A stretch of DNA of 64,000 bases, taken from assembly GCF_014205225.1 (NCBI RefSeq), contig NZ_JACHNB010000001.1, positions 1,240,001 to 1,304,000 on the forward strand. The letters are read 5' to 3'. How positions within the stretch are numbered: the first letter of the stretch is position 1; every line of letters begins with the position of its first letter. The stretch is from Actinoplanes octamycinicus (lineage in GTDB: Bacteria > Actinomycetota > Actinomycetes > Mycobacteriales > Micromonosporaceae). The position numbers and the translations under genes are program-made. The notes beneath the pieces are model-generated. The model did not search any database. It saw only the letters and a program-made list of their open reading frames with translations, and was not told the origin of the DNA. Below are positions 30,116 through 62,925 of the stretch, piece after piece.

Positions 30116-30200
30116 TTATCCACACCAGCACGTCATCCACAGCCCCGTCCCGGGCGATCCACTCTCCGCGCGACACTGTCTTCGGGCGGCTCCCCCTGGG
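30116..30200 (-). repeat. Dispersed element with paired DnaA-box-like sites, copy A
   Basis: On the - strand: CCCAGGGGGA (30200-30191), then GCCGCCCGAAGACAGTGT, then TGTGGATGA (30141-30133) and TGTGGATAA (30124-30116), starts 17 bases apart. Nearly identical over about 100 bases to copy D at 62841-62925. It abuts the 65-bp tandem repeats. Confidence 0.75.
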
Positions 30201-30429
30201 CGGGCGGGGACTGGGAAGTGGCCCTGCTGTCCCAACGCGTTGCAACGACCCCTTGAAACCGCCGGCGGGCGGGGACTGGGAGGTGGCCCTGCCGTCCCAA
30301 CGCGTTGCAACGACCCCCTGAAACCGCCAGCGGGCGGGGACTGGGAGGTGGCCCTGCCGTCCCAACGCGTTGCAACGACCCCTTGAAACGCCGGCGGGCG
30401 GGGACTGGGCAGTGGCCCTGCCGTCCCAC
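30201..30429. repeat. 65-bp tandem repeats, 3.5 copies
   Basis: Units at 30201-30265, 30266-30330, 30331-30394 (one base shorter) and a partial unit 30395-30429, over 90 percent identical by eye. Each full unit contains the 10-bp palindrome CAACGCGTTG. Both strands translate but to meaningless repeats. Confidence 0.85.
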
Positions 30430-30514
30430 GTCCGCACCGATTCGGACACCACGATCAGAGGCGCCCGCGAGCAGCTGGAACCGACCCACCTGTCCATCCC
30501 AGCGGTACCCATCG

Positions 30515-30567
30515 GGCTGGCCTGTGCAGGTGTCTCAAGACCGGTCAGACACCCGTGAGGGCCAGCC
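30515..30567. terminator. Nested hairpin downstream of the EI24 gene
   Basis: Outer arms GGCTGGCC (30515-30522) and GGCCAGCC (30560-30567); inner arms GGTGTCT (30529-30535) and AGACACC (30547-30553). It lies about 100 bases beyond the EI24 stop on the - strand. The rest of 30430-30670 shows no gene. Confidence 0.4.
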
Positions 30568-30670
30568 GGGAGAGGGAGCGCGTCACGGCCGGCCCCAAGC
30601 GGGCCTCGCGGAGCGTCCGGCCACGGGACCGGCCGCGCGGCGGGCGCTCCGGGCGTACCGGAAATGGGTT

Positions 30671-31471
30671 TCAGAGGGAACTTGTGGTGGTGATCTCGAT
30701 CGGCTTGCCCAGGGCTCGGCGGGCCAGCAGCGTCGCGCCGGCGATCGCGGCCGGCATCAGGAAGATCGCGCCGAGCGGGATCAGGAACGTGCAGAAGACC
30801 GCGCCGCCGAAGCCGAGCGTCAGCGGGACGTTGGCGGCCAGGACCGCGCGGCGGTGCCGGAGCCGCTGGCCGCGGCGCTGGAACGGGACGCCGGTGAGCT
30901 CCAGCGCCAGCAGCCAGCCGCCGACCGCGCCGGCCAGGACCGGGACCACCGTCTGGCCGATCACCGGGACGAAGCCGAGCGCGAAGAGCGGGACGCCGGC
31001 CAGGATGCTGAGGCCGATCAGCCGCAGCGAGTCGGCCAGGCTGCGGCGCAGCGCGCTCCAGAAGCCGACCTCGACCGCTTCCGGGACGCCGCCGTAGCGG
31101 TCCTCGACCAGCTCGGAGATCTTCTCGTAGAACGGGTCACCGATCAGCAGGGTGACCGCGGTGAAGGTGAGGACGCCGAGCAGCAGGGTCAGGCCGAGCA
31201 GCCCGGCGCCGGCCAGCACCTCGACGAAGTCGCGCCAGAAGCCGGACCAGTCGTCGGCGAACCAGGTGACCTGCTCGGAGAGGTCCGGCAGGAAGCGGAT
31301 CAGGACGACCAGGCCGATCGTGTAGAGCACGCCGGAGAGCAGTGCCGGGAGCAGGCCCAGGCCGAGCAGCCGCGGACTGCTCAGCACCAGGCCGAGGCCG
31401 CGGCCGAGCAGACCGACCCCGGTGGCGAACTGGCGAACCGCGGCCAGCGGGCGTTGCGGATCTTCCTTCAC
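30671..31471 (-). CDS. EI24/CysZ-like membrane protein
   Basis: 266 residues with about four long membrane regions and the family motif GDPFYEKISELVEDRYGG, as in CysZ sulfate permeases and EI24-domain proteins. It may move sulfate or another anion; the substrate is uncertain. The ATG is followed by a basic segment. It is separated from neighbours on both sides by hairpins or gaps. Confidence 0.82.
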   Translation of the reverse strand: MKEDPQRPLAAVRQFATGVGLLGRGLGLVLSSPRLLGLGLLPALLSGVLYTIGLVVLIRFLPDLSEQVTWFADDWSGFWRDFVEVLAGAGLLGLTLLLGVLTFTAVTLLIGDPFYEKISELVEDRYGGVPEAVEVGFWSALRRSLADSLRLIGLSILAGVPLFALGFVPVIGQTVVPVLAGAVGGWLLALELTGVPFQRRGQRLRHRRAVLAANVPLTLGFGGAVFCTFLIPLGAIFLMPAAIAGATLLARRALGKPIEITTTSSL

Positions 31472-31499
31472 GACCCGGCAGCTTAGTCGTGCCTGTCGA

Positions 31500-31982
31500 T
31501 CAGGGGGCGGGCGGCGCGCTCGGGTCGGTGGTGTCGCCGGTGCTCGGCGGGACGCTGTCCGACGGGGTCGGGGTGGGTTCCGGCGGCCCGGTGATCTGGG
31601 TCGGGGTGGGCACCGGCGGCATGCTCAGGATCGGCGGCGGCGACGAGGTGGCGGCGGTGACCGGAGGCGCCGAGGCGGGCACCGTGACGGTCTTGGTGAT
31701 CACGGTGCTGCTGACCACCACGACCGGGGGCGGCGCGTCGCCCGCCGGGCGGCCCGGGCGTCCGGCGTAGCCGTCCGGGGACTGTCTGGTGTGCGGCGGG
31801 GCCACGCCGAGGGCGTCGCTGCCACCGGTGCCGCCGGTCTCCGCGGCCGCCACGGGTCGCGCCTTCGGGGTGCCCAGCGCCCAGCCGACCACGACGGCGA
31901 AGGGCAGGCCGATCGCGAGAACCCCAATAAAAACGGATTTAGGAGACAACAGCACGTCGAGTTCACCGCTCGACAACGCCAA
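31500..31982 (-). CDS. Membrane-anchored Pro/Thr-rich protein of unknown function
   Basis: 160 residues. One membrane helix at about 17-37 (FIGVLAIGLPFAVVVGWALG) followed by an extracellular low-complexity region rich in Pro, Thr, Ser and Val. No domain is recognised. The start is uncertain: TTG at 31982 gives 160 aa, an in-frame GTG nine codons later is possible. It could be a wall-spanning linker protein. Confidence 0.55.
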   Translation of the reverse strand: MALSSGELDVLLSPKSVFIGVLAIGLPFAVVVGWALGTPKARPVAAAETGGTGGSDALGVAPPHTRQSPDGYAGRPGRPAGDAPPPVVVVSSTVITKTVTVPASAPPVTAATSSPPPILSMPPVPTPTQITGPPEPTPTPSDSVPPSTGDTTDPSAPPAP

Positions 31983-32024
31983 AAGTTACGGCTTTCGGGA
32001 CATTTCACTTTGCGTACGCGGTAA

Positions 32025-32200
32025 GCACCGCCCCGGCGACGGGCAACTCGCACCCCCGGGCACCGCCCCGGCGACCAGCGACTCGCACCTCCGGGCACCG
32101 CCCCGGCGAGCAGCAACTCGCGCCTCCGGGCACCGCCCCGGCGACCAGCGACTCGCACCTCCGGGCACCGCCCCGCCGAGCGGCTGATCGCGGGGACGGC
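32025..32200. repeat. 35-bp tandem repeats, five copies
   Basis: The word GCACCGCCCC recurs at 32025, 32060, 32095, 32130 and 32165, an exact 35-base period. Units differ at a few positions. There are no unique spacers, so it is not a CRISPR array. It fills the gap between the hydrolase stop and the unknown membrane protein start (31983-32258); no gene is seen there. Confidence 0.85.
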
Positions 32201-32258
32201 ACCGCACGCCGAGCGGCTGCTCGCGGGGACGAGCGTCGCCGCGACCGGCGCCCCGCGC

Positions 32259-33143
32259 TCAGTCGTTCAGGAACGCCGAGACCCGGTCGCGCAGCTCGTT
32301 CCGGTTCGTCCACATGACCGTCGGGCGGTCGTAGATCTCCAGCTCCGCGCCGAGCAGCTCGGCCAGCCGCTCCGCCCACCCCGCCGGATGGATCTCGTCG
32401 CCCAGGCAGCCGAGCACCAGGGCACGACCCCGGAACGCCTTGAGCAGCGACTCGTCCGGCAACGCCGGGCTGGTCCAGAGCGTGGCCAGCTCCGCGGAGA
32501 GCCCGTCGCGCTGCAACTGGTCGACGCGCTGCCGCAGATAGCTCCAGCCGGCCGGGGTGTTCCGCACCGACGGCGGCAACTCCGCCTCGACCGCGTCGGC
32601 GATCATCGCGGCCTCGCCGGACTCGACCGAGGCGAGCAGCCGGTCCAGGCGCTGCGCCGCGGCCGCCGGACGGTGCCCGTCCAGCGGGGCGGGCAGGAAG
32701 AGCACCACCCGCTCGAACCGGTCCGGGGTCTCGGCGAGCAGCCGGCACAGCGCGCCGGCGCCCATGCTGACCCCGAGCGCCCGGGTCGCGCCGGCCAGGT
32801 CGGCCACGCCGCGCAGGTCGCTCGCCAGGTCGCCGAAGGTCCACGGGCCGGGCGGCGCGTCGGAGCGGCCGTGCCCGCGGAACTGGAAGAAGACCCGGCG
32901 GCCGGCCACCGCGCTGCCCAGCGGGCGGGTCCCGGCGATGTCCCCGGCCAGGCCGTGCGCGAACACCGTCATCGGGCTGCCGGCGCCGGTGATCAGCTGC
33001 TCGACGCGTACCCCGGAGGGAAGAGTGACCAGCTCGGTGGCCGGACCCGGCAGCGTCGGGCGACCAGACCGCGGTCCGGTCCGATCGGCGCGCTGCAGGC
33101 GCGGCCCGCCGTCCGGCGGCGGCGGCCCGAAGCGCCCCCTCAC
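32259..33143 (-). CDS. Alpha/beta hydrolase-fold protein lacking the catalytic histidine
   Basis: 294 residues. Oxyanion-hole region VFAHGLAGD, nucleophile Ser in LGVSMGAGA, acid in LGCLGDEIHPAGWA. The strand that should end in the catalytic His reads EIYDRPTVMWTNRNEL, with no His. It may be inactive or use another residue (the HP after the Asp is a candidate). The first 35 residues are low complexity, so the true start may be downstream of the chosen GTG. Confidence 0.8.
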   Translation of the reverse strand: MRGRFGPPPPDGGPRLQRADRTGPRSGRPTLPGPATELVTLPSGVRVEQLITGAGSPMTVFAHGLAGDIAGTRPLGSAVAGRRVFFQFRGHGRSDAPPGPWTFGDLASDLRGVADLAGATRALGVSMGAGALCRLLAETPDRFERVVLFLPAPLDGHRPAAAAQRLDRLLASVESGEAAMIADAVEAELPPSVRNTPAGWSYLRQRVDQLQRDGLSAELATLWTSPALPDESLLKAFRGRALVLGCLGDEIHPAGWAERLAELLGAELEIYDRPTVMWTNRNELRDRVSAFLND

Positions 33144-33168
33144 CGGACCGCCACGCGAAGCGACCGGG

Positions 33169-33483
33169 TCACCAGAAGCCCTTGCCGTCCGCGATGTCCT
33201 TGAGCCCGGGCCGCACGTCCAGCAGGTAGATCAGCGCGGCCGCGATGCCGATCAGGCCGAAGATGCCCAGAGCGGACTGGCCCCAGTAGGTGAGCAGCAG
33301 GCAGACCCCGATGATCGCGGCCCAGGCGCCCTTGGGCAGGGTGCCGAGCGCCTGGAAGCCCGCGCCCCGCTGGGTCAGGCAGTGCACGAACGCCACCGTC
33401 TCCAGGATCAGGGCGACCAGCAGGATCGCGAACTGGATATAGGCCTGGACGGCGAAGGCGAAGATCGGCGCGGAGAGTGCCAT
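33169..33483 (-). CDS. DUF2516 family membrane protein
   Basis: 104 residues starting MALSAPIFAFAVQAYIQFAILLVALILETVAFVHCL, with three membrane helices and the ending YLLDVRPGL, as in DUF2516 proteins. Start ATG at 33483; upstream in-frame codons run into a terminator. In mycobacteria a similar small membrane gene follows hbhA and its XRE partner, matching the order here. Confidence 0.88.
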   Translation of the reverse strand: MALSAPIFAFAVQAYIQFAILLVALILETVAFVHCLTQRGAGFQALGTLPKGAWAAIIGVCLLLTYWGQSALGIFGLIGIAAALIYLLDVRPGLKDIADGKGFW

Positions 33484-33498
33484 GCCGGAGAGTCTATG

Positions 33499-33529
33499 CC
33501 GCGGGCCCCGGCAACGCCGGGGCCCGCGG
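33499..33529. terminator. Terminator between the HbhA-like gene and DUF2516
   Basis: Perfect 14-bp GC stem (33499-33512 with 33516-33529) and a three-base loop, 15 bases after the HbhA-like stop. Confidence 0.8.
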
Positions 33530-33544
33530 ATCATGTCGGGGTGC

Positions 33545-34051
33545 TTACTCGGCCGGCTTCGGGGCCGGGGTGGCCTTGGCCCGCTTGCGCGGCTTCGGGG
33601 TGGCGGCGGCCTCGACGGCCTTGGCCTCCTCGACGGCGGCCTCGACAGCCTTCGGCTGCTCGGTGGTCTCGATGTCCGCGTTCACCACGTCGGCCGACTC
33701 GACGATGCCGGTGCCGACCACCTTCTCGCCGCGGGCGACCAGGGCGACGTAGGCCGCGACGGCCCGCTCCTGGGCGATCTGGGCAAACGCGGTGGCGGCG
33801 GTCTGCGCGTTGCTGCGGATCGCGGCGAAGTCCGCGGTGGCGGCCTTCTCCTGCAGCGCGGTGGCCTGGGCGGCCGCCTTCTTCTGCAGGTCGCCGGCCT
33901 GCACGTTGGCGGTGCGCAGCGAGGCGACGGCGCGGTCGCTGAGCTCGGTCAGCACGGCCGGCAGCTTGCGCAGCTGCTGGTAGGCCAGGTCACCGGCGCC
34001 GGCGGCGGCGTAGAGCGGGGCCGGGATCTTGGTCTTGGTCTGCTCGGTCAT
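33545..34051 (-). CDS. HbhA-like (heparin-binding hemagglutinin-type) protein
   Basis: 168 residues: coiled-coil-rich body (about 25-110) with TKTKIPAPLYAAAGAGDLAYQQLRKLPA at the start, and a C-terminal Lys/Pro/Ala-rich tail (KPRKRAKATPAPKPAE) like the lysine-rich adhesion tail of mycobacterial HbhA. In non-pathogens it is a lipid-associated, envelope-linked protein; the role here is not known. Its ATG overlaps the XRE regulator stop by four bases. Confidence 0.8.
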   Translation of the reverse strand: MTEQTKTKIPAPLYAAAGAGDLAYQQLRKLPAVLTELSDRAVASLRTANVQAGDLQKKAAAQATALQEKAATADFAAIRSNAQTAATAFAQIAQERAVAAYVALVARGEKVVGTGIVESADVVNADIETTEQPKAVEAAVEEAKAVEAAATPKPRKRAKATPAPKPAE

Positions 34052-34476
34052 TTCGTCTCCTCGGCGATCGGGGTGGTCCGGGGCGCGTCGTCCGCGTCGG
34101 TGTCCGACGTGGTCTCTGACGGCGGTGGCGCGTTCCGAGCGTTCTCATTGCGGAACGTCTCGTAGATCTGCGACAGGGACTGCTTCTGCGCGATCGTGAG
34201 CTCCGGGTCGACCGCGATGGCCGCCAGCACGCCCTGCTGGCCCTCGCCATCGAGCAATCCGGCCCGCAGGTACATCGCGGGTGTCGACACACGCAAGGCG
34301 CTGGCGATCTGCTGCAGCACCTCGGCGCTCGGCTTGCGGAGGCCACGCTCGATCTGGCTGAGGTAGGGGTTGCTCACCCCCGCCTTGTCGGCGAGCTGCC
34401 GCAGCGAGATCTTCGCGGTCTGCCTCAGGTCGCGGATGAACGTCCCGATGTCCTGGGGCAGGTCCTTGTTGGCCAT
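34048..34476 (-). CDS. XRE-family regulator upstream of the HbhA-like gene
   Basis: 142 residues. HTH: IGTFIRDLRQTAKISLRQLADKAGVSNPYLSQIERGLRKPSAEVLQQIASAL. The C-terminal 60 residues are acidic and Thr-rich. The order XRE-hbhA-DUF2516 matches mycobacterial Rv0474-Rv0475-Rv0476 as I recall it. The dyad directly upstream is a likely autoregulatory operator. Confidence 0.9.
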   Translation of the reverse strand: MANKDLPQDIGTFIRDLRQTAKISLRQLADKAGVSNPYLSQIERGLRKPSAEVLQQIASALRVSTPAMYLRAGLLDGEGQQGVLAAIAVDPELTIAQKQSLSQIYETFRNENARNAPPPSETTSDTDADDAPRTTPIAEETK

Positions 34477-34497
34477 GTCCCCAAGTTAGCTCGCGGT

Positions 34498-34534
34498 GCT
34501 AGCTCCTGCAAGCAAAGTGCTAACAGGAGCTAGC
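34498..34534. promoter_or_regulatory. Palindromic operator upstream of the XRE-hbhA genes
   Basis: 11-bp perfect inverted repeat GCTAGCTCCTG/CAGGAGCTAGC with a 15-base centre. Together with GTTAGC (34485) and GCTAAC inside the loop it gives four GYTARC half-sites in 50 bases. Starts 22 bases upstream of the XRE ATG, so it probably overlaps the promoter and binds the encoded regulator. It could alternatively form a leader hairpin. Confidence 0.65.
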
Positions 34535-34571
34535 GTGAAGCGCGTCACCCGGAGGAAACTCAGGGTGACCC

Positions 34572-35483
34572 CTACCAGACCGCGCGGACCTCGCCGACCG
34601 GGCGGCCGCCACCCAGCACCGGCTCCTCGATCAGCGGCGGCTCCACCCCGAGCTTCCGCAGGGCCGCGAGCAGCACCGGCACCCGTGCCCGGGCGCTGCC
34701 GTCGGAGATCTTCACCGCGATCCCGCCGACGCCCGGCAGGGCGGCCGCGGACACCCCGTCCGCGCCCCGCTTCACCAGCAGGCCGGGGACCGCGCGCATC
34801 AGCACGGTGTCCTCCGACTCGGGGCCGGCCACCAGCTCCGGACGGGCCCGCATCGCGTCCGCCACCTGGCGTTCCGGGGTACCCGGCGCCGCCTCGACCA
34901 GCCGCAGGAAGGCCCGGGCCAGCGCGTCCGGCGAGATCGCCAGCACCGGCGCGCCACAGCCGTCCACCCCGGCCGCGGCGATCGGCTCGCCGGCCAGCTC
35001 GCTCACCGCGTCGGCGAGCGCCACCTGCAACGGGTGCTTGGGGTCCAGGTACGACTCCAGGTCCCACCCGTTCGCCACACAGGTGGCCAGCATCCCGGCG
35101 TGCTTGCCGGAACAGTTCATCAGGACCGGCGCCGGCTCCCCGCCGGTCCGCAGGTACGCCCGCTTCGCCGTCTCCCCGAGCGGCAGGTCGGCCGGGCAGC
35201 GCAGCGCCTCCGGCCCGAGCCCGGCAGCGGCCAGCATGGCGGTCACCCGCTCCACGTGGAACGGCTCGCCGTCGTGGCTGGCGCTGGCCATCGCCAGATC
35301 GGCGAACTCCCGCGGGACCAGGCCGCTGCGCAGCATGCCGACGGTCTGCAACGGCTTGTTCGACGAGCGCGGGAAGAACGGGCTGCCGGTGTCCCCCACG
35401 CCGGGCCGGCCGGTCAGCGCGACGATCCCGTGGTGCACGCTCTCCACGAAGCCGGAGCGGACCACCTCCGCGACGATGGTCAC
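34572..35483 (-). CDS. Asparaginase (thermolabile L-asparaginase II family)
   Basis: 303 residues; PF06089-type protein with RSGFVESVHHGIVALT, SSNKPLQTVGML, ASASHDGEP, MNCSGKHAGML and DGCGAPV. Hydrolyses L-asparagine to aspartate and ammonia. Cytoplasmic, no signal peptide. Its start overlaps the BKACE stop by four bases, so the two are co-translated. Confidence 0.9.
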   Translation of the reverse strand: MTIVAEVVRSGFVESVHHGIVALTGRPGVGDTGSPFFPRSSNKPLQTVGMLRSGLVPREFADLAMASASHDGEPFHVERVTAMLAAAGLGPEALRCPADLPLGETAKRAYLRTGGEPAPVLMNCSGKHAGMLATCVANGWDLESYLDPKHPLQVALADAVSELAGEPIAAAGVDGCGAPVLAISPDALARAFLRLVEAAPGTPERQVADAMRARPELVAGPESEDTVLMRAVPGLLVKRGADGVSAAALPGVGGIAVKISDGSARARVPVLLAALRKLGVEPPLIEEPVLGGGRPVGEVRAVW

Positions 35484-36322: not shown

Positions 36323-36358
36323 CCTGCCACGCCGCGGGCCGCTCCTCCCGATGCGGAA

Positions 36359-36379
36359 AAAACCGCTTCCCGGTACGCC
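36359..36379. repeat. 21-bp dispersed word, copy 1
   Basis: An AAAACCGCTTCC - CGGTACGCC word, identical to 62422-62442, in the 100-base gap between BKACE and ygfZ. A degenerate relative lies at about 30644-30668 in reverse orientation. Confidence 0.6.
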
Positions 36380-36424
36380 GGCCGCCCGCCGACTGGTCGC
36401 CGTCGGCCGCCGGCTCCTCCGCCG

Positions 36425-38659: not shown

Positions 38660-38840
38660 CAACTCACCCGTCGCAACCCGCATGTCCCACTCGCGGTCGC
38701 AACTCTCCAGTGGCAACTCGCCGTCGCAACCCGCAAGTCCCCCATCGCCGTCGCAACCCGCTGGTCGCAACCCGCAGGTCCCAACTCGCCGTCGCAACCG
38801 GCACGTCGCCACCCGCCAGTCGCAACTCGCCGGTCCCCAC
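38660..38840. repeat. Degenerate short tandem repeats of a GTCGCAAC word
   Basis: About ten imperfect copies of (C/A)(G)TCGCAACYCGCMRGTCC-like units, irregular spacing of 13-21 bases, directly upstream of copy B of the dispersed element. No gene in 38642-39603. Confidence 0.7.
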
Positions 38841-38857
38841 TCCTGAGTCCCCGCCCG

Positions 38858-38949
38858 CCCAGGGGGCGCCAGCCCATCGGTCATCGTGGCGGAAACGGCC
38901 AAGATCCCGCGAGCACCCTGTGGACAACCGCCGCGGGGTGTGTGGACAA
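38858..38949 (+). repeat. Dispersed element with paired DnaA-box-like sites, copy B
   Basis: CCCAGGGGG at 38858, then TGTGGACAA at 38919-38927 and 38941-38949 (starts 22 apart). The middle differs from copies A and D but the block-to-box spacing (61 bases) is kept. Confidence 0.7.
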
Positions 38950-39026: not shown

Positions 39027-39085
39027 CCCGGCTGGCTCCCATGGGTGTGTCAAGCGCATTGACACACCCATGGGAGCCAGCCGGG
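39027..39085. repeat. Perfect 27-bp inverted repeat with five-base loop
   Basis: Arms 39027-39053 and 39059-39085, loop GCGCA. Fully matched, mixed composition, so it stands out from the GC background. There is no U-tract and the nearest stop is 380 bases upstream, so it is not an obvious terminator. Confidence 0.8.
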
Positions 39086-47183: not shown

Positions 47184-47187
47184 AACC

Positions 47188-48540: not shown

Positions 48541-48660
48541 CGAGGCCCGCCGCGCATTCGAGGCCCGCGTCGCTCTCGAAACCCGCCGCACATCCGCAGC
48601 CCACCGCGGACTCGAAGCCGCCGGACATCCGAAACCCGCGCCACTCTCAGATCCCGCCCT

Positions 48661-48743
48661 CCCAGGGGGACCTTCCCTGGACAGTCTGGCGGATTCCGCG
48701 AATCGCGGCGGGTGGCCTGTGGACAACGCGGTGGTGTGGACAA
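48661..48743 (+). repeat. Dispersed element with paired DnaA-box-like sites, copy C
   Basis: CCCAGGGGGA at 48661, then TGTGGACAA at 48718-48726 and 48735-48743 (starts 17 apart, block-to-box spacing 57). Confidence 0.72.
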
Positions 48744-48959: not shown

Positions 48960-49335
48960 ATCACCCGGACAGAGCGGCGGCGCGGACAGCGGGGTTTGCA
49001 GAGAGCGCGATGGCGCGGACCACGCGGATACCGCGACCACGCGGACAGAGCGGCAGCGCGGACAGAGCGGCTGACGCGGTGCGGCGGTGCGGGCAACACG
49101 GCGGGGCGGGCAACTCGGCGAGGCGGTGGGGCGGGCAGGGCGGCGGGGCGGGCGGGGCGGCAGCGCGGACAGAGCGGCTGACGCGGCGCGGCAGCGCGGG
49201 CAACACGGCGAGGCCGCGGGCGGGCAGGGCGGCGGGGCGGGCAGGGCGGCAGGGCGGCAGCACGGGCAGCGGGGCGGGGCGGCAATGCGGCGGGCGGGCA
49301 GCGGAGCGGGCGGTGCGGCGGGGCGGCGGGGCGGG
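48960..49335. repeat. Degenerate GC-rich short repeats
   Basis: Irregular copies of GCGGACAGAGCGGC and GGCGGGGCGGGCAG-like words. No coding potential recognised. Confidence 0.6.
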
Positions 49336-49449
49336 GTTCGGTGACCAGCCGCGGACAGTGAAGAGGGCGGCGATCGCTTTGGACGCGCAGCGGCCAGATC
49401 GCCGTCCTCGGCCCGCGCTACTTAAAGAGAATTTGGTGTACGACCGCGG

Positions 49450-49652
49450 CCCGGCCAGGCTTGGTCGAGGTGATCGGTAGGGTGCTCAGGCCCGCGCTGC
49501 CCACTCATATGGCGGGGTGTGGCTCTCTCCCGGCTTGGACCCTGCCGGTCACCGTGGCGCGGAGTGGCTGAAGAGGGGTTTGCCCAGCTGTAAGTAGCGT
49601 TGCCCTCCCGCTGGTGTGGTTCTGCCGCGACGACGGGAAGGTCAACGGGTAC
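49450..49652 (+). ncRNA. Candidate IS110 bridge-RNA region (5' non-coding end)
   Basis: About 200 non-coding bases precede the transposase start inside the presumed left end. In IS110-group elements this end is transcribed into a bridge RNA that specifies donor and target DNA. Sequence here has several GC-rich arms but I cannot fold it, so the call rests on family knowledge and position. Confidence 0.3.
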
Positions 49653-50845
49653 ATGGGTCAGCTGATCATTGGAGTCGATCCGCACAAGCGGTCCGCGACG
49701 ATCGAGATCATCAACGAGCGTGAACAGGTGCTGGCCCGTGGCAGGTACGGCACCGACACCGGTGGCTACCAGCAGATGCTCGCCGCCGGCCGCCGTCACG
49801 CCGGCCGGGTGTGGGCGGTCGAGGGCTGTAACGGCATCGGCCGGCACCTGGCCCAGCGGCTGGTCGCCGACGGCGAAACCGTGCTGGACGTCCCGGCGAA
49901 ACTCGCCGCGAAAGCCCGCAACTTTGACACCGGGCACGGCCGTAAAACCGACGGTCACGACGCGCACCACATCGCGGTGACCGCCCTGCGCACCCCGGGC
50001 CTGCGCCGCGTTCACGCCGACGGCGCCACCGTCGCGCTGCGGCTGCTGGCCGACCGCCGCGACCAGCTCGGCGCCACCCGCACCGAGACCATCAACCGGC
50101 TGCACCAGCTACTGCTCGAACTGATCCCCGGCGGCGCGAAGAAGAACCTGACCACCGACCAGGCCCGCACCCTGCTCGAACGCGTCAGCGTCCCGGCCGG
50201 CGACATCGTCACCGCCACCCGCTATCAGCTGGCCGGCGACCTGGCCGACGAGCTCACCACCCTGGACACCAAGATCAAAGCAGCCAACCGGCAGCTGAAG
50301 ACCGTGCTGGCCGCCACCGGCACCCAGCTGACCAGCCTCAACGGCATCGGCCCCTCCGGCGCCGCCCGCCTGCTCGGCGACATCGGCGACATCAGCCGCT
50401 TCCCGACCCGCGGGCACTTCGCCACCTGGAACGGCACCGCCCCCATCGACGTGTCCTCCGGCGACAACCATCATCACCGGCTCAACCGGGCCGGGAACCG
50501 GCGCATCAACCGGGTCCTGCACATCATGGCCATCACCCAGCTCCGCTTCGACACCCCCGGCCGCGCCTACTACCAGCGCAAACGCGCCGAAGGCAAAACC
50601 GCGATGGAAGCCATGCGAGCGTTGAAACGACGCCTGTCCGACACCGTCTACCGCCAAATGATCAAAGACGACCACACGGCACAACAGACAGCGACGGGTC
50701 CGGGAGGACACACGGGGGCGACTCTGAACTCCAGCGCGGCCGACCCAAACCCCAAGATCGACACTTCGGAAAAGTCACAACCCGGACCCGCCAACCACCA
50801 CCCTAAAACACCCCTCACACCAACCCCTTGACAGAGGGGTGCCGG
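49480..50845 (+). mobile_element. IS110-family insertion sequence (ends approximate)
   Basis: Contains one transposase gene and a long 5' non-coding end. IS110 elements usually lack terminal inverted repeats and target duplications, so ends cannot be set from one copy. The right end is probably near the CCCCT-TGACAG-AGGGG hairpin (50824-50839) that spans the transposase stop. Confidence 0.6.
49653..50831 (+). CDS. IS110-family transposase
   Basis: 392 residues. N-terminal RuvC-like DEDD domain: D9 (GVDPHKRS), E57 (AVEGCNG), D100 and D103 (KTDGHDAHH); C-terminal Tnp_20-type domain with helix-hairpin-helix LTSLNGIGPSGAARLLGDIGDISRF, and the conserved Ser in the SSGDNHHHRLNRAGNRRINRVLH region. 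All catalytic acids are present and the frame is intact, so it may be active. I chose ATG 49653; a GTG 13 codons upstream is possible. Its codon use has slightly more A than neighbours near the 3' end. Confidence 0.92.
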   Translation: MGQLIIGVDPHKRSATIEIINEREQVLARGRYGTDTGGYQQMLAAGRRHAGRVWAVEGCNGIGRHLAQRLVADGETVLDVPAKLAAKARNFDTGHGRKTDGHDAHHIAVTALRTPGLRRVHADGATVALRLLADRRDQLGATRTETINRLHQLLLELIPGGAKKNLTTDQARTLLERVSVPAGDIVTATRYQLAGDLADELTTLDTKIKAANRQLKTVLAATGTQLTSLNGIGPSGAARLLGDIGDISRFPTRGHFATWNGTAPIDVSSGDNHHHRLNRAGNRRINRVLHIMAITQLRFDTPGRAYYQRKRAEGKTAMEAMRALKRRLSDTVYRQMIKDDHTAQQTATGPGGHTGATLNSSAADPNPKIDTSEKSQPGPANHHPKTPLTPTP

Positions 50846-50853
50846 GAGCATGC

Positions 50854-50873
50854 GGTCCGCACCACCGCGGACC
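50854..50873. terminator. Terminator after the Gfo/Idh/MocA gene
   Basis: 7-bp stem GGTCCGC/GCGGACC with a six-base loop, 60 bases past the - strand stop. Confidence 0.45.
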
Positions 50874-50933
50874 TGCGTATATGAGGCGTTTGAACGGTAT
50901 GGGGTGTCGGCTGGATCGGGCGGCGGGCGGGTC

Positions 50934-55776: not shown

Positions 55777-55817
55777 CTACGCGCTCGCTGTCGTCTCGGA
55801 GGGATTGTCGAACCGGG

Positions 55818-56921: not shown

Positions 56922-56986
56922 GGTTGTTGTCCCCTTCGGGTTCAGTGCAGCCGGTCGCTCACCGGCTCGAAGGGAAAACTAAGAGT

Positions 56987-57030
56987 GCCAAGTGACCTGC
57001 GAACCGGTCGCAAATGAACTGGGAGTGAAC
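56987..57030 (-). promoter_or_regulatory. PHO box: four 11-bp direct repeats upstream of pstS
   Basis: On the - strand GTTCACT (57030), GTTCATT (57019), CGGTTCG (shifted, in the 57008 unit) and GGTCACT (56997) are placed 11 bases apart, matching the PhoP-binding GTTCACC direct repeats of actinobacteria. The first and second units are strongest. Ends 66 bases before the pstS ATG. Confidence 0.8.
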
Positions 57031-57175
57031 ACGTTCGGCCGTCGAGATGGCCAAGCCCTGATTGCCAGTTGTCCGTTAAGTGAACCGCGCGCCCCCCATC
57101 CGAAATGTCGGATATGCTGGCGCGCTCGTGACCTCAGCGAGATATCGGCTTGTCCGGGGCGTTACCTGAAGCCGT

Positions 57176-58009: not shown

Positions 58010-58020
58010 CGACGGTGCGG

Positions 58021-58743
58021 TCAGACCGGGAGGGAGACCGGGTCGTTGTCCGGCAGCTGGCGGCCGGACGGCGGGACCACGAACTTGTAGCCCACCTGGC
58101 GCACGGTGCCGATCATCGACTCGTACTCCGAGCCGAGCTTGGCCCGCAGGCGCCGGACGTGCACGTCGACGGTGCGGGTGCCGCCGAAGTAGTCGTAGCC
58201 CCAGACCTCGCGCAGCAGCTGGTCGCGGGTGAAGACCCGGCCCGGGTGCTGGGCGAGGAACTTGAGCAGCTCGAACTCCTTGTAGGTGAGGTCGAGCGGG
58301 CGGCCCTTCAGCTTCGCGGCGTAGGTGTCCGGGTCGATGTTCAGCTCGCCGGCCCGGATCGAGCCGCCGGCCCCGGCGGTCGCGTTGTTCAGCCGGCCGA
58401 CGCTGAGCCGCAGCCGGGCCTCGACCTCGGCCGGGCCGGCGCTGGCCAGGATCACGTCGTCGACGCCCCAGTCGGCGTTCAGCGCGATCAGGCCGGCCTC
58501 GGTGACCACCGCGATCAGCGGGACCCCGATGCCGGTGGCATGCAGCATCCGGCAGGTGGCACGCGCCTCGGACAGCTCGGAACGGGCGTCGACCAGGACT
58601 GCGTCCGGGCTCGGACCGGAGACCAGCGTGCGCACGTCACGGGGGGCGGTCCGAACCGAGTGGGGCAGCAGGTCCAGGGCGGGCAGCACGGCGGAAGGCT
58701 CACCGGCACGTGCCGTCACCAACAGAAGGATCTCCACACTCAC
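58021..58743 (-). CDS. glnR: GlnR-type orphan response regulator
   Basis: 240 residues. N-terminal receiver-like domain [57 protein letters not shown], lacking the full acidic phospho-pocket as in other GlnR proteins. Winged helix with [55 protein letters not shown]. Controls nitrogen assimilation in actinobacteria. Followed by mshD. Confidence 0.88.
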
Positions 58744-58981
58744 CTCCGTCCTCGCGGCGCGAGGCCGCTCGGGTGACCCGGTCTGCGCAGCTCAGAGCTC
58801 CGCCACCGGAGAGACTGGGCCCGGCGTCACCGACGGGTGGGTTGCGGTTACCTTAACCGATCCATCGGTGGTCACCACGGCTTCGCACCCGCAAGTGACG
58901 TACTAAACCCCTGTTCGCCGGGTTCGTAACGCGCCTTTTACAAAGTTGGGTGCCAGCCGGGCTTCTGGCACGATCGCAGGC
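58744..58981. other. Divergent promoter region of glnR and the membrane protein gene
   Basis: 238 bases. A GTAAC-N6-TTTAC sequence at about 58927-58943 vaguely resembles half a GlnR box. No clear terminators or RNA genes seen. Confidence 0.35.
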
Positions 58982-59995
58982 GTGTTCCCCTCCATGCCGC
59001 AGGACGACCCCTGGGATGCCGACGCCTCCCGTGACGTCGCGCGTCTGACCCCGGGCCGCCCCAAAGCCGGGATGTACGGCGCCGTGCCGGACGACGAGCC
59101 CGAGGAGCGGCCCTCCTCCGCCGATCCGGAGACGGAGGACGAGGAGGAGTTCGAGGAGATCGAGGTCGTCCCGGTCCGGCCCAAGCTGTCGGTGGCGATC
59201 GGCGGGTTCGCGGCGCTGCTCGGCGCGGCCCTGATCGCCGGGACGCTGACCACCGGCCCGGACAACCGCACGGCGTACGCGATCATCCTGTTCGGCGTCC
59301 AGCTGCTCGGCCTGCTCGCCTGGACCATGGCACTGAACCCACCGGCCCGCTCGGCGACCGCCGCGATCAGCGGCGGCACCGGCCTGGTGGCCTGCTATCT
59401 GGCGGCCACCAGCGAGCAGCCCGGGCTGCTGCCCCTGCTCTACGTCGCGGTGGCCGGATTCCTGGTGGCGCTCGGCGGCCAGCTGGTCCGGGCCGACGAC
59501 CGGCACCGGGTCGGCGACTCGTGGCGCACCACGCTGCTGATCGTGCTCGGCGTGGTGGCCTACGCGATCCCGATCGTGCTGACCCGGCAGTCGCTCGGCT
59601 CGCAGGCGATCCTGGTCTGCTGCACCGGCGCCGGGCTGGCGCTGCTGGTCTCCCGGCTGACCGACGCGGTGCTCCCGAAACCGCGGATCGCCGCGCAGGT
59701 GCCCCGCGGCGCCGCCGGCATCGTGCTGGGCGCGATGGTCGGCACCTTCGCCACCGCCTGGCTGGGCAGTCAGCTGATCTTCCCGTTCACCCCGGCCAAG
59801 GGCGCGGTGGCCGGCCTGATCGCGGCGGTCGCGGCGATCCTGGTCGACCTGGCGGTGAACTTCGGCGAGGCGGGCCGCCGGCTGGCCGGCGAGGCGCCGA
59901 CCTTCTGGCTGGCCCGGCACATGACCGGCCCGCTCGGCGGGTTCGCGCTCACCTTCGCCGCCGCCTACGCGCTCGTGCACCTCTATCTCACCTGA
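58982..59995 (+). CDS. Membrane protein of unknown function
   Basis: 337 residues. Acidic cytoplasmic N-terminus (about 1-70, with EDEEEFEEIEVV), then eight or nine membrane helices arranged as strings of Ala/Leu/Val. I recognise no transporter motif. GTG at 58982 chosen; ATG at 58994 possible. Confidence 0.75.
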   Translation: MFPSMPQDDPWDADASRDVARLTPGRPKAGMYGAVPDDEPEERPSSADPETEDEEEFEEIEVVPVRPKLSVAIGGFAALLGAALIAGTLTTGPDNRTAYAIILFGVQLLGLLAWTMALNPPARSATAAISGGTGLVACYLAATSEQPGLLPLLYVAVAGFLVALGGQLVRADDRHRVGDSWRTTLLIVLGVVAYAIPIVLTRQSLGSQAILVCCTGAGLALLVSRLTDAVLPKPRIAAQVPRGAAGIVLGAMVGTFATAWLGSQLIFPFTPAKGAVAGLIAAVAAILVDLAVNFGEAGRRLAGEAPTFWLARHMTGPLGGFALTFAAAYALVHLYLT

Positions 59996-60065
59996 ACCCT
60001 CCGTTTCCGGGGACCGTGGACGTGGGCATGTACGGTCCTCAACAGCCCACGACCCGGGAGGCCCC

Positions 60066-60857
60066 GTGACCGAGGAGTACGCGACCGACCAGCGCCCGCG
60101 CCGCCGCCGGGGCCGGGGGCTCCTGATCGCTGTCGTGGTGCTGCTGCTCCTGCTGCTCGGCGGCCTGCTGGTGGTCGACCGGTACGGCGCGTCGTACGCC
60201 GAAGGGGTGATCGGGGACAAGGTCGCCGAGCAGGTGGCCGCGCGGAAGGCCAGCAGCGACACCCCCGAGGTGGACATCAAGGGCGTCCCGTTCCTGACCC
60301 AGGTGGCCCGCGGGGAGTACCAGGAGATCCAGATCCAGCTTCCGAACTTCACCGGCCCGACCGGCACCGGCGACAAGATCCACATGGACCTGCTGGACAT
60401 CCGCGCACGGGACGTGAAGGCGCCGCTCGACGCGCTGCGCAGCGGCCAGGGCACCGTGGTGGCCGGCACTCTGACCGGCACCGGCACCCTGGACTACCCG
60501 CAGCTGGTCGAGCTGATCGGGCAGAAGGGTCTGAAGCTCGCCGAGAAGGACGGCAAGCTGGTCGGCTCGGCTCAGGTGGCCGCGCTCGGGCAGCAGTTCG
60601 ACGTCTCCGGCACCGCCAAGCTGACCGTGGTCGACGGCGGGATCCGGGTCCGTTTCGCGGATGTGAAGGCGGCGAATCTGCCGGACCTGCCGGTGATCCA
60701 GAACCTGGTGCAGTCCTACGTCGACAAGCTCAGCCTCGACCTGCCCGCGCCGGAGCTTCCGCTGCAGCTCAAGGTACGCACGCTGACCCCCGAGCCGGAC
60801 GGGCTGAAGGTGACGTTCGGGGCCAACGACGTGAACCTCAACGCCGGCGGCCTGTGA
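60066..60857 (+). CDS. DUF2993 (LmeA-like) envelope protein
   Basis: 263 residues. Basic N-terminus (RPRRRRGRG), one membrane helix (about 19-37), then a beta-rich domain with VDIKGVPFLTQVARGEYQEIQIQLPNF. LmeA of mycobacteria matures lipomannan; its gene (Rv0817c) lies in the same neighbourhood as cysA2-sseC2 and mshD, as here. GTG start with GGGAGG upstream. Confidence 0.87.
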   Translation: MTEEYATDQRPRRRRGRGLLIAVVVLLLLLLGGLLVVDRYGASYAEGVIGDKVAEQVAARKASSDTPEVDIKGVPFLTQVARGEYQEIQIQLPNFTGPTGTGDKIHMDLLDIRARDVKAPLDALRSGQGTVVAGTLTGTGTLDYPQLVELIGQKGLKLAEKDGKLVGSAQVAALGQQFDVSGTAKLTVVDGGIRVRFADVKAANLPDLPVIQNLVQSYVDKLSLDLPAPELPLQLKVRTLTPEPDGLKVTFGANDVNLNAGGL

Positions 60858-60925
60858 TCCGCGCCTCGTCCCGGATCGTGGTCGGTACTGTTCCGCGCTC
60901 TGGAACCGCTGGTAGGGTCCGTTCT

Positions 60926-61000
60926 ATGAGCCCGTTGCTCACGAAAAGGCGCGCGATCGACCTGTGTCGCGTGGCCGCGTGCCTGTGTCGCTCCGTCTGA
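60926..61000 (+). CDS. Cysteine-rich leader peptide of the sulfur gene pair
   Basis: 24 residues, MSPLLTKRRAIDLCRVAACLCRSV. It has the LLTKRR-xDLxRV-xxxxCR pattern of actinobacterial leader peptides found ahead of sulfur genes. Three Cys in the last eleven residues would make ribosomes stall when Cys-tRNA is scarce. A TAGGGT -10-like box sits eight bases upstream. Confidence 0.8.
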   Translation: MSPLLTKRRAIDLCRVAACLCRSV

Positions 61001-61036
61001 CTGACGGAGCCGCTCGGTGCTGAGCACCCTCTTCTT
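60991..61036 (+). promoter_or_regulatory. Attenuator downstream of the leader peptide
   Basis: Hairpin 1 (60991-60997 with 61003-61009) overlaps the leader stop codon; hairpin 2 (GGTGC-TGA-GCACC, 61016-61028) is followed by the pyrimidine run CTCTTCTTCT. Arrangement suggests transcription attenuation by Cys-codon stalling; the switching structure itself is inferred. Confidence 0.5.
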
Positions 61037-61175
61037 CTAGCCCAGGGCATCTTTCTGTCCGGCAGTGGCGCCGTCGCAAACCAGCCCGTGATCCCACCTA
61101 TCCATGGGTCCGCGCGGGGTGCGACCACACCTCCGTGCGCTGACTCACCCAATCACCCACACAGGGAGTGAAACG

Positions 61176-62024
61176 ATGAGTCGCGACAACGCACTCGTAT
61201 CGGCCGACTGGGCCGAGAAGAACCTGGACACCCCCGGCATCGTCTTCGTCGAGGTCGACGAGGACACCACCGCGTACGACGGCGGCCACATCCCGGGCGC
61301 CATCAAGATCGACTGGAAGCAGGACCTGCAGGACCCGGTCCGCCGCGACTTCGTCAACCAGGAGCAGTTCTCCGCGCTGCTGTCCGAGCGCGGGATCAGC
61401 AACGACGACACCGTGATCCTGTACGGCGGCAACAACAACTGGTTCGCGGCGTACGCGTACTGGTACTTCAAGCTGTACGGCCACGAGTCGGTCAAGCTGC
61501 TCGACGGTGGCCGCAAGAAGTGGGAGCTGGACGCCCGCGTCTACACCAAGGACGTCCCGGCCCGCGCCGCGACCTCCTACCAGGCCAAGGCGCCGAACCT
61601 GGAGATCCGCGCGTTCCGCGACGAGGTGGTCCAGGCCATCGGCGTGAAGAACCTGGTCGACGTGCGCAGCCCCGACGAGTTCGCCGGTCGCCTGCTCGCC
61701 CCGGCGCACCTGCCGCAGGAGCAGTCGCAGCGCGCCGGTCACATCCCGACCGCGATCAGCGTGCCGTGGAGCAAGGCCGCCAACGAGGACGGCACGTTCA
61801 AGTCCGACGAGGAGCTCGCCAAGATCTACGGCGACGCCGGGCTGGACGGCAGCAAGGACACCATCGCGTACTGCCGGATCGGCGAGCGTTCCTCGCACAC
61901 CTGGTTCGTGCTCAAGGAGCTGCTCGGCCAGGAGAACGTCAAGAACTACGACGGTTCCTGGACCGAGTACGGCTCCCTCATCGGTGTGCCGATCGCCCTC
62001 GGCGACGAGCCCGGAAAGGCCTGA
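61176..62024 (+). CDS. Thiosulfate sulfurtransferase (CysA2-like rhodanese)
   Basis: 282 residues, two rhodanese domains. Catalytic C233 in YCRIGERSS; earlier YDGGHIPGAIKIDW and LLDGGRKKW. Transfers sulfur from thiosulfate to acceptors. ATG 61176 has AGGGAGTG upstream; a longer in-frame start lies in the leader region. Followed by DUF1416, the usual partner. Confidence 0.95.
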   Translation: MSRDNALVSADWAEKNLDTPGIVFVEVDEDTTAYDGGHIPGAIKIDWKQDLQDPVRRDFVNQEQFSALLSERGISNDDTVILYGGNNNWFAAYAYWYFKLYGHESVKLLDGGRKKWELDARVYTKDVPARAATSYQAKAPNLEIRAFRDEVVQAIGVKNLVDVRSPDEFAGRLLAPAHLPQEQSQRAGHIPTAISVPWSKAANEDGTFKSDEELAKIYGDAGLDGSKDTIAYCRIGERSSHTWFVLKELLGQENVKNYDGSWTEYGSLIGVPIALGDEPGKA

Positions 62025-62029
62025 TCGAC

Positions 62030-62362
62030 ATGACTTCTCCCGCCAACATCGCCGCCGGTTGCGCCGCTCCCGACCAGTCCGCTCCCCTCCCCGCGAGCGT
62101 CGACCTGGAGAAGGAGACCGTGATCACCGGTCTGGTCCGCACCGCCGAGGGTGAGGCCGTGGGCGGCGCCTACGTCCGCCTGCTCGACGGCTCCGGCGAG
62201 TTCACCGCCGAGGTGGTCACCTCACCCGAGGGCGTCTTCCGCTTCTTCGCCGCCCCGGGCTCGTGGACGCTGCGCGCCCTGAGCCGCTTCGGCAACGGCG
62301 AACTCGCCGTCGACGCCACCCGCGGCGTCAACGAGGTGGCCCTGAGCGTCGCCACCGCCTGA
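62030..62362 (+). CDS. DUF1416 (SseC-like) protein
   Basis: 110 residues: SVDLEKETVITGLVRTAEGEAVGGAYVRLLDGSGEFTAEVVTSPEGVFRFFAAPGSWTLRAL, a carboxypeptidase-regulatory-like beta fold. Always next to the sulfurtransferase in mycobacteria (cysA2-sseC2) and possibly modifies its activity. Starts five bases after the sulfurtransferase stop. Confidence 0.93.
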   Translation: MTSPANIAAGCAAPDQSAPLPASVDLEKETVITGLVRTAEGEAVGGAYVRLLDGSGEFTAEVVTSPEGVFRFFAAPGSWTLRALSRFGNGELAVDATRGVNEVALSVATA

Positions 62363-62376
62363 CCCACGCTCTGTTC

Positions 62377-62406
62377 AGGGCGGGACTCCTTCGGGGGTCC
62401 CGCCCT
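62377..62406. terminator. Strong terminator after DUF1416
   Basis: 13-bp stem with one G-T pair (62377-62389 with 62394-62406) closed by a TTCG tetraloop between C and G, 14 bases after the stop. Confidence 0.88.
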
Positions 62407-62421
62407 TGCGCTTTCCGGACC

Positions 62422-62442
62422 AAAACCGCTTCCCGGTACGCC
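62422..62442. repeat. 21-bp dispersed word, copy 2
   Basis: Identical to 36359-36379. Both lie just past a gene end, preceded by CGGA. Confidence 0.6.
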
Positions 62443-62780
62443 CGAAGCGTCCCGCCCCACCACACACCGCAGCCCGCCGCACATCGCAGCTTCGCGCACG
62501 CCGCACGCCGCAGCCCCGCCGCACGCGTCGGCCGCACGCGTCGGCCGCACGCCGCGGCCCCACCGCACACCGCAGCCTCGCGCATGCCGCACGCCGCACA
62601 CCGCAGCCCCGCCGCACCCCGCAGGTACGCCGCACGCCGCAGCCTCGCGCACCGCACGCCGCAGCCCCACCGCACACCGCGGCCCGCCACGCACCCCAGC
62701 CCCGCTGTGCACTGCAGCCCCGCTGTGCACAGCCCCCGGCGCGCACCGCAACCCCGGCGGCCACCGATCGCCTGTCCAGG
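62443..62780. repeat. Degenerate repeats of CGCACRCCGCAGCCCC-like words
   Basis: About 15 imperfect copies of a CGCAC(A/G)CCGCAG word, irregular spacing. Open frames on both strands are Ala/His/Arg or Cys/Gly/Ala-rich and look like translated repeat. Confidence 0.65.
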
Positions 62781-62840
62781 CTCCTCCAAAGCGATCGTGG
62801 TGCAACACCCTTGCCCCGCCCACTTCCCAGTCCCCGCCCA

Positions 62841-62925
62841 CCCAGGGGGAGCCGCCCGAAGACAGTGTGACGCGAAAGCGGGATCGCCCGGGACAGGACT
62901 GTGGACAACCGGCTGGTGTGGACAA
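62841..62925 (+). repeat. Dispersed element with paired DnaA-box-like sites, copy D
   Basis: CCCAGGGGGA at 62841, GCCGCCCGAAGACAGTGT, then TGTGGACAA at 62900-62908 and 62917-62925 (starts 17 apart). Matches copy A over about 100 bases. Confidence 0.78.

What the first reader, a model, noticed from the sequence alone, without database searches (positions are those of the whole stretch)
30116..62925. Four-copy dispersed element with paired DnaA-box-like sites embedded in tandem repeats
Copies at 30116-30200 (-), 38858-38949, 48661-48743 and 62841-62925 share CCCAGGGGG, then 57-61 bases, then two 9-mers (TGTGGACAA, or TGTGGATRA in copy A). Box starts are 17, 22, 17 and 17 apart. TTGTCCACA/TTATCCACA are actinobacterial DnaA boxes. 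A and D are nearly identical over about 100 bases, so the family spread by copying. Each copy lies beside tandem repeats of a different unit (65, about 20, 16 and 32, 6 bp), all at gene 3' ends and none in a gene. It could titrate DnaA, organise the chromosome or be a MITE; I know of no described element with this layout.
Basis: partly seen in the sequence, partly recalled or inferred. Interest (0 to 1): 0.78.

Follow-up and report, generated by a model that had tools for sequence, protein, structure and literature searches.

The report
Dispersed competence-type promoter repeats
The four look-alike spots in the window belong to a family of about 120 short intergenic repeats, each built like the promoter of this bacterium's DNA-uptake gene comEA, which points to a possible control site for DNA uptake in actinobacteria that can now be tested.

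Summary
The four sites belong to a family of about 123 copies in the 10.28 Mb genome, seen mainly in one genus, very probably Actinoplanes. Three blocks are conserved: a GC-rich block, CAKTRTS, and two TGTGGACAA boxes, 17 bp apart in 111 of 112 copies counted. No RNA covariation was found.

Read on the other strand, the layout is a promoter: box pair, 29 nt, a degenerate -10 hexamer, a G-rich leader. Box pairs picked without using the middle block carry TANNNT 36-41 nt from the boxes in 14 of 25 rows; the best such band in 2000 shuffles reaches 6. In this genome the five strict pairs outside the family precede recA, comEA and three other ORFs; comEA has the family's own geometry (17 bp, 29 nt). 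In other genera some pairs precede comEA, cpaB and cpaE/ssd.

Copies come and go between close relatives and mostly lie between convergent genes. My reading: copied solo promoters of a competence-type regulon. TTGTCCACA is the actinobacterial DnaA box, so DnaA is the obvious binder; neither binding nor transcription was shown. The link to tandem repeats is weaker.

The parts
30116..30219 (-). copy A of the dispersed repeat (element strand -; the promoter-like reading runs on + towards higher coordinates)
   Evidence: R1 match, 86.3 bits; sequence
30116..30141 (+). A: box pair TTATCCACA (30116-30124) and TCATCCACA (30133-30141), starts 17 apart
30172..30177 (+). A: -10-like hexamer GACACT, 29 nt from the box-proximal CCACAG
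   Evidence: counted by hand; position statistics
30190..30219 (+). A: G-rich leader block CCCCCTGGG.. after the -10-like hexamer
38840..38949 (+). copy B (22 bp between box starts); promoter-like reading on -
   Evidence: R1 match, 58.5 bits
38919..38949 (-). B: box pair (38919-38927 and 38941-38949)
38883..38888 (-). B: -10-like hexamer CACGAT, 29 nt from the box (does not fit the NANA[AC]T pattern counted)
   Evidence: counted by hand
48646..48743 (+). copy C; promoter-like reading on -
   Evidence: R1 match, 81.3 bits
48718..48743 (-). C: box pair (48718-48726 and 48735-48743), starts 17 apart
48683..48688 (-). C: -10-like hexamer CAGACT, 28 nt from the box
   Evidence: counted by hand
62820..62925 (+). 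copy D (second-best R1 score in the genome); promoter-like reading on -
   Evidence: R1 match, 95.5 bits
62900..62925 (-). D: box pair TTGTCCACA (62900-62908 and 62917-62925), starts 17 apart
62864..62869 (-). D: -10-like hexamer CACACT, 29 nt from the box
   Evidence: counted by hand
62828..62852 (-). D: G-rich leader block

Best explanation
The repeat is a dispersed, copied promoter module. It has the same box and hexamer geometry as the promoter of this genome's comEA gene, so it probably belongs to the same control circuit, which by some of its members (comEA and recA here; comEA, cpaB, cpaE/ssd in other genera) looks like the DNA-uptake (competence) regulon. The box is the actinobacterial DnaA box, so DnaA is the likeliest protein to occupy it, possibly as activator of promoters that have no good -35. 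Most copies have no gene to drive and point into the 3' end of a neighbour; they would give short or antisense transcripts when the circuit is on and would also hold DnaA. Shown: the family, the fixed geometry, its match to gene promoters, gain or loss between relatives. Inferred: that it is transcribed, that DnaA or another reader of the box binds, that competence is the circuit, how it spreads.
For: (1) In reverse reading, [TGC]ANA[AC]T followed by G lies 28-30 nt from CCACAG in 105 of 112 own copies (97 at exactly 29; 7 have none) and at 27-29 nt in 28 of 30 distinct copies of other species (24 at 29; the other 2 at 39) (which corrects: one row there was an own copy and one a duplicate). 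11 of 123 own and 4 of 34 distinct foreign copies lacked the full pattern and were dropped. Copies were found partly by this block, so its presence is partly selected; its distance less so, since 18-50 nt was allowed. (2) Independent of that block: 25 rows of box pairs chosen by the pair alone (20 rows from 19 loci of other genera, 5 own) have TANNNT at 36-41 nt in 14 of 25 rows; letter shuffles give 0.83 +- 0.91 there. I had seen the band by eye first, so asked for the best 6-nt band anywhere in 0-54: observed 14, shuffles mean 2.6, maximum 6 in 2000. (3) Of 39 strict pairs in the own genome 34 lie in copies; the other 5 precede recA (PF00154), comEA (HHH_3 + SLBB; TIGR01259 E 1.7e-23, under that model's cut-off), a CpaB-like ORF (35% identity over 86 aa to a relative's CpaB, E 0.002; no Pfam or NCBIfam hit), a WXG100 ORF and an ORF without a family. 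comEA: box starts 17 apart, CAGACT at 29; CpaB-like ORF: 17 apart, TAACCT at 29. (4) Other genera: 20 loci fetched (8 of 11 pairs of G215, 6 of 14 of G180, 4 of 9 of G134, 2 of 2 of G037); 10 downstream ORFs scanned: ComEA, CpaB (TIGR03177 E 5e-18, just under its cut-off), CpaE/Ssd (TIGR03815, 353 bits, cut-off 154), Tex, DUF4192, two DDE transposases, a periplasmic binding protein, two without a family. (5) The CpaB-type ORF has the pair in front and, upstream of the pair, an FmdB-like ORF (my reading of the translation) in both G000 and G134. (6) In Micrococcus luteus a CpaB-type gene beside tadZ/cpaE (PMC8467076, section 24 part 1) and tad/Flp genes (PMC4322843, passages) are needed for transformation, comEA/EC activation is called necessary but not sufficient, and the upstream signal or cascade is called unidentified in 2026 (PMC12849477, passages). 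(7) One copy is kept at the same place in G000, G346 and G339: boxes (one base apart in G000's second box) and leader block (two bases apart in G339) hold, spacers change, and the -10 hexamer changes only at positions 3-5 (CAGACT, CAGGAT, CACACT).
Against: No transcript, protein binding or phenotype was seen. No conserved -35. The hexamer lacks the first T of a -10 in nearly all own copies. The distance is 29 nt in the family and in comEA of G000 but 36-41 in most other pairs; at 27-31 nt the 25 independent rows show no excess (1 of 25). The G-rich leader block is absent from the comEA promoter, so the family is more than a copied comEA promoter. 10 of the 20 other-genus loci were not scanned downstream, and several scanned genes (Tex, DUF4192, transposases, binding protein, own WXG100) are not known competence genes. 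Only 25 of 123 copies point towards a gene's 5' end, 4 of them within 150 bp. Matches per genome run from 0 to 153 within the genus, so solo copies are not needed for the circuit.
Confidence: 0.6

Rival explanations
1. DnaA sink: the copies are distributed datA-like titration sites that hold DnaA and set initiation timing; promoter likeness is secondary.
For: 99 of 103 exact boxes in 1.1 Mb sit in copies; one DnaA_C protein in the genome; copies are denser near oriC (decile counts ori to ter 15 14 23 16 17 17 10 6 4 1; KS p 1.7e-7), as a sink should be; in the terminal fifth lie 5 of 123 copies but 7 of 34 copies of an IS (Fisher p 0.004).
Against: A sink needs no fixed -10-like hexamer or leader block. 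31 of 67 genomes of the genus have no match to the pattern. Core genes of this bacterial family tend to lie near oriC (PMC3364876 passage), which may explain the gradient; over the whole arm the IS copies do not differ significantly from it (KS p 0.35).
Confidence: 0.3
2. A selfish intergenic repeat that happens to carry a promoter; copied by an unknown enzyme, tolerated at gene 3' ends, no host role.
For: 74 of 123 copies between convergent genes against 63 of 342 gaps in unbiased pieces; at truA the copy is in G000 and was not found in any of 29 relatives' loci read; of six copies in conserved gene order G346 lacks four and G339 lacks three of the four that could be judged; species-specific variants of block 2; in G215 two DDE transposase genes have the box-pair promoter.
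Against: No terminal inverted repeats at the four window copies; no longer parent unit except through IS110-type insertions and shared neighbouring repeats; one copy held at the same place in three species with mainly the blocks conserved.
Confidence: 0.45
3. The box is read not by DnaA but by a dedicated regulator of direct repeats, for example an HTH_17 (excisionase/BldC-like) protein such as the M. luteus candidate Mlut_14660.
For: Mlut_14660 lies divergent to the CpaB-type gene; one mutation in it brought back the parental mutant's altered comEA/EC reporter phenotype, and the authors propose that it represses com genes (PMC8467076, passages and section 24 part 1). That such proteins can bind direct repeats is recalled.
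Against: No HTH_17-like ORF was seen beside the pair in the two CpaB-type loci read here (translations read by eye, no family scan). The box equals the known DnaA box.
Confidence: 0.3
4. A two-way transcription terminator or 3'-end RNA element of convergent genes.
For: Place between convergent genes.
Against: No covarying structure in 25 or 58 rows; no Rfam match at its threshold in the loci tried; orientation independent of the direction of the neighbours (24 against 21 at mixed ends); boxes unexplained.
Confidence: 0.05

Closest known systems
Actinobacterial DnaA boxes (TTGTCCACA; Streptomyces, Mycobacterium, Actinoplanes oriC)
   Same: identical 9-mer, in groups
   Different: here in direct pairs 17 bp apart inside a promoter geometry, at about 120 places outside oriC
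datA / DARS / DnaA-box clusters outside oriC (E. coli, B. subtilis, Streptomyces; recalled)
   Same: non-coding DnaA-box groups away from oriC
   Different: those are single or few loci with other partners (IHF, Fis); no -10 geometry; not multiplied (recalled)
Competence promoters (ComK boxes, Cin boxes of Bacillota; recalled)
   Same: one motif in front of DNA-uptake genes
   Different: other sequence; no actinobacterial one was named in the passages seen of three M. luteus papers
Mobile promoters / promoter propagation in prokaryotes (concept recalled; the terms occur in papers of the listing)
   Same: promoter stretches repeated at many places
   Different: those sit in front of genes (recalled); here most copies have no gene to drive
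REP/REPIN and MITE families
   Same: short, intergenic, copy number differs between relatives
   Different: no palindromic unit, no terminal repeats; no link to a transposase found, RAYT genes were not searched for

Membership tests
DnaA-box pair | consensus TTGTCCACA | tested here: met
   99 exact boxes within the 123 copies; consensus from PMC4285127
DnaA-box pair | bound by DnaA | not testable with these tools
   a single DnaA_C protein in the genome only makes it likely
Competence-type promoter | same motif and geometry at comEA of the same genome | tested here: met
   box starts 17 apart, CAGACT at 29 nt; gene is ComEA-type
Competence-type promoter | -10 at a fixed distance, beyond chance, in pairs not chosen by it | tested here: met
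   14 of 25 rows at 36-41 nt; best band in 2000 shuffles 6
Competence-type promoter | the family's own 29-nt distance enriched in those independent pairs | tested here: not met
   TANNNT at 27-31 nt in 1 of 25 rows, shuffles 0.7; seen only as TAACCT and CAGACT in two own gene promoters
Competence-type promoter | drives a downstream gene | tested here: not met
   98 of 123 copies point into a 3' end
Competence-type promoter | pair enriched at uptake genes across actinobacteria | tested here: inconclusive
   comEA in G000 and G215, cpaB and cpaE/ssd in G134, among other genes; no wide scan was possible
Competence-type promoter | transcribed, induced with comEA | not testable with these tools
   no expression data
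MITE | terminal inverted repeats and target duplications | tested here: not met
   0 inverted pairs around A, B, C; one 8-nt pair around D; target duplications could not be defined
REP/REPIN | palindromic unit with paired arms | tested here: not met
   no covariation
datA/DARS | one or few loci acting on the DnaA nucleotide state | tested here: not met
   about 123 copies; action on DnaA not testable
Structured RNA | covarying stems | tested here: not met
   0 pairs with both sides changed

The most novel reading that the evidence does not exclude
Paired DnaA boxes at a fixed distance from the -10 are the control site of the DNA-uptake regulon across actinobacteria (comEA, cpaB, cpaE/ssd, recA), so the replication initiator DnaA itself switches competence; in Actinoplanes this promoter escaped its genes and multiplied into a family of solo promoters that fire antisense or short RNAs at gene ends when cells become competent.
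Probability: 0.2. Interest if true: 0.92.

Novelty: new variant of a known kind. Interest (0 to 1): 0.74.

Why it matters
What switches on DNA uptake in actinobacteria is unknown according to the passages seen of a 2026 Micrococcus luteus paper (PMC12849477). A motif that recurs, in fixed promoter geometry, before comEA, cpaB, cpaE/ssd and recA gives that question a concrete site to mutate and a protein to test (DnaA, or a dedicated reader). Separately, more than a hundred solo copies of one promoter-like module at gene 3' ends would be an unusual load on a bacterial transcriptome and a large pool of DnaA sites, present in some species of a genus and missing in close relatives, so nature offers the comparison ready-made. 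In ten literature searches no listed title or abstract start describes the repeat or the motif; several lists were capped (for example 25 of 365 papers, 12 of 137, 8 of 2,038) and the library holds open-licence papers only.

Tried and rejected
RNA element: no covariation in 25 own rows or 58 rows (27 own, 31 foreign, one foreign pair identical); no Rfam match at gathering score in L081, L359, L370, L355; in L064, L065, L066, L130 four matches far below their thresholds. Chance: reversed-pattern control 0. Recurrent neighbour gene: 116 + 112 flanking proteins scanned (of up to 246; those of 240-2400 bp), no family stands out except an IS110-type transposase (6 neighbours); this IS has 34 full copies and sits in a different, palindromic repeat, 5 of 34 lie within 2 kb of a copy against 1.6 expected, so it is hardly the carrier. 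Plasmids and phages: no match to copy D. Replication-strand bias: none (66 to 57). A longer parent unit: none beyond IS110-linked and neighbouring-repeat pieces. TANNNT at 27-31 nt in the 25 independent rows is not enriched, so the 29-nt geometry rests on the family, comEA and the CpaB-like ORF. Idea that tandem repeats are made by the element: kept only as an association. A G-quadruplex role of the G-rich block was noticed and not tested.
Full report
What was checked. The four sites of the finding are at the stated coordinates. A pattern scan of the window's own genome (10,277,926 bases, one contig; the window is 1,240,001-1,304,000) gave 31 + 55 matches and none for the reversed control. From 25 copies I made a sequence-only model, R1, which finds 134 places at E<=1 and 123 at E<=1.2e-5. 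Only 150 of 17,270 first-look candidates were scored, so I scanned 400 kb of evenly spaced pieces without that cap: 4 strong matches, all known. The family is therefore about 123 copies, one per 84 kb.

Anatomy. Spacers are free. Alignments of 25 own rows and of 58 rows (27 own, 31 foreign) show no covarying pairs, so this looks like a DNA site. Information content along the copies, in the reverse reading, peaks at the boxes, at positions 27-36 after the box, and at the G-rich block 42-67; nothing is conserved after that. 11 of 123 own copies fell out of this count because they lacked the full pattern.

Where copies lie. With a simple codon-based gene caller, 74 of 123 copies lie between convergent genes; in the unbiased pieces 63 of 342 gaps are convergent. 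In the reverse reading 98 of 123 point into the 3' end of a neighbour and 25 towards a 5' end. The single DnaA_C protein puts dnaA at 1.766 Mb; copies thin out towards the terminus. Core genes of this bacterial family also tend to lie near oriC (PMC3364876, passage), but an IS with 34 copies is not thinned in the terminal fifth (7 of 34 against 5 of 123 copies, p 0.004), so a selective or titration reason for the gradient is not excluded. There is no strand bias against replication (66 to 57).

Who has it. By pattern, 36 of 67 genomes of the genus have a match (own genome included), from one match to 153 per genome, some places counted twice, controls near zero; single matches such as G324's look like chance. 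Outside the genus a pattern tuned to the own genome matched 1 of 297 genomes of the order, looking like chance, but that pattern misses real relatives: R1 found 7 places in G037 of another family, and R2 scored copies with all blocks in G134 and G037 (45.5, 31.5 and 36.8 bits). In named genomes an exact pattern found 19 stretches: 18 in Actinoplanes or Paractinoplanes and one, weaker, in Actinoallomurus. The genus name of the window is inferred from this and from genome sizes.

Turnover. TruA is core; the gap behind it carries a copy in G000, and none was found in the 29 other loci read (of 66 other genomes; one locus has a run of N), the nearest with 95% identical TruA. Over about 400 kb of conserved gene order, G000 has six copies. 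G346 shares one place in the same direction, one in the opposite direction and lacks four; G339 could be judged at four places and shares one. At the place shared by all three, boxes and leader block are nearly unchanged while spacers differ. So copies come and go, and at least one seems under constraint.

The promoter reading. An order-wide scan for box pairs alone found them in 59 of 200 genomes (own included), with spacings of their own. I fetched 20 such places from four genomes of other genera. Read towards the box-proximal side, they carry TANNNT in a narrow band 36-41 nt from the boxes: 14 of 25 rows, counting also five own pairs outside the family (one locus gave two rows, one was too short). 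Letter shuffles give 0.83 in that band; because I had seen the band by eye first, I repeated the test for the best 6-nt band anywhere, and 2000 shuffles reach at most 6. The family's CAKTRTS block is, on that strand, [GC]ANA[AC]TG, a -10 hexamer without its first T, at 29 nt. In the own genome 34 of 39 strict pairs are in copies; the remaining five precede recA, comEA, a CpaB-like ORF, a WXG100 ORF and an ORF without family. comEA and the CpaB-like ORF have their hexamers at 29 nt like the family; recA and WXG100 at 39. In other genera the pair precedes comEA (L337), cpaB (L351), cpaE/ssd (L350), tex, a DUF4192 gene, two DDE transposases, a binding-protein gene and two genes without a family. 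The weakest of the 123 own copies (28.6 bits) precedes a DUF559 gene.

What it most likely does. TTGTCCACA is listed as the high-affinity DnaA box of Streptomyces coelicolor and Mycobacterium tuberculosis (PMC4285127, passage) and TT(G/A)TCCACa as the Actinoplanes oriC box (PMC3364876, passage). A protein bound at the pair would sit upstream of RNA polymerase on the same face at 29 and 39 nt, one helical turn apart (inference). Genes found behind such pairs overlap the set tied to transformation in M. luteus: comEA/EC, a CpaB-type gene next to tadZ/cpaE, and Flp pili (PMC8467076 section 24 part 1; PMC4322843 and PMC12849477 passages). I therefore read the repeat as solo copies of a competence-type promoter. 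Binding, transcription and induction are not shown. DnaA as sink, a selfish repeat, and a dedicated regulator such as an HTH_17 protein remain open and are not exclusive.

Limits. Gene calls are home-made. The 20 foreign loci were my pick (8 of 11, 6 of 14, 4 of 9, 2 of 2 pairs), and only 10 of their downstream ORFs were scanned. Copies were found with models that include block 2, so its presence in copies is partly selected.

Noticed in passing
window 49317-50887 and 33 other full copies in G000: An IS110-type insertion sequence (about 1.55 kb, 93-100% identical to the window copy) sits in a second dispersed repeat with a long inverted repeat whose arms differ together between copies (for example GGGTGCGGCGATC..GATCGCCGCACCC). 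Six further places match its left flank without the IS, four of them with the right flank directly following. Resembles IS110-family targeting of REP-like repeats (recalled).
   Followed up: partly
window 39030-39084: Long palindrome GGCTGGCTCCCATGGGTGTGTCA..TGACACACCCATGGGAGCCAGCC; similar GGCTGG..CCAGCC palindromes with other cores lie in the truA gap and other gaps of some relatives.
   Followed up: no
L355 (G000:417539): recA has a box pair in front (second box CCATCCACA), starts 18 apart, TACCGT 39 nt on.
   Followed up: partly
L342, L343 (similar in L345, L347; G180): In G180 the pair is followed by TAGGATCAAAAATAGGGGAGGAGGTTGGTGGCCCCCG without a clear long ORF: perhaps another solo version with its own leader.
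   Followed up: no
L335, L340 (G215): Two DDE-type transposase ORFs have the box pair in front, which would tie transposition to the same circuit.
   Followed up: no
G000 about 2669480-2669640, also in G346 and G339 (gap 6): A stretch of about 110 bases (GTGGTGCGGGTGGTGGGCTTGGGTACGCC..CCCCCGCTGGTCCC) is nearly identical in the three species between otherwise unlike sequence; no Rfam match at gathering score. Possibly an undescribed small RNA.
   Followed up: partly
L078 gap at G000:2331045 and G346:448813: An orthologous gap holds a copy in both genomes but in opposite directions: independent gains or inversion.
   Followed up: no
G000:2469752, G346 about 604966, G339 about 5327297: A weak, box-pair-only place is kept in all three species in front of the same ORF: an old gene-linked pair.
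   Followed up: partly
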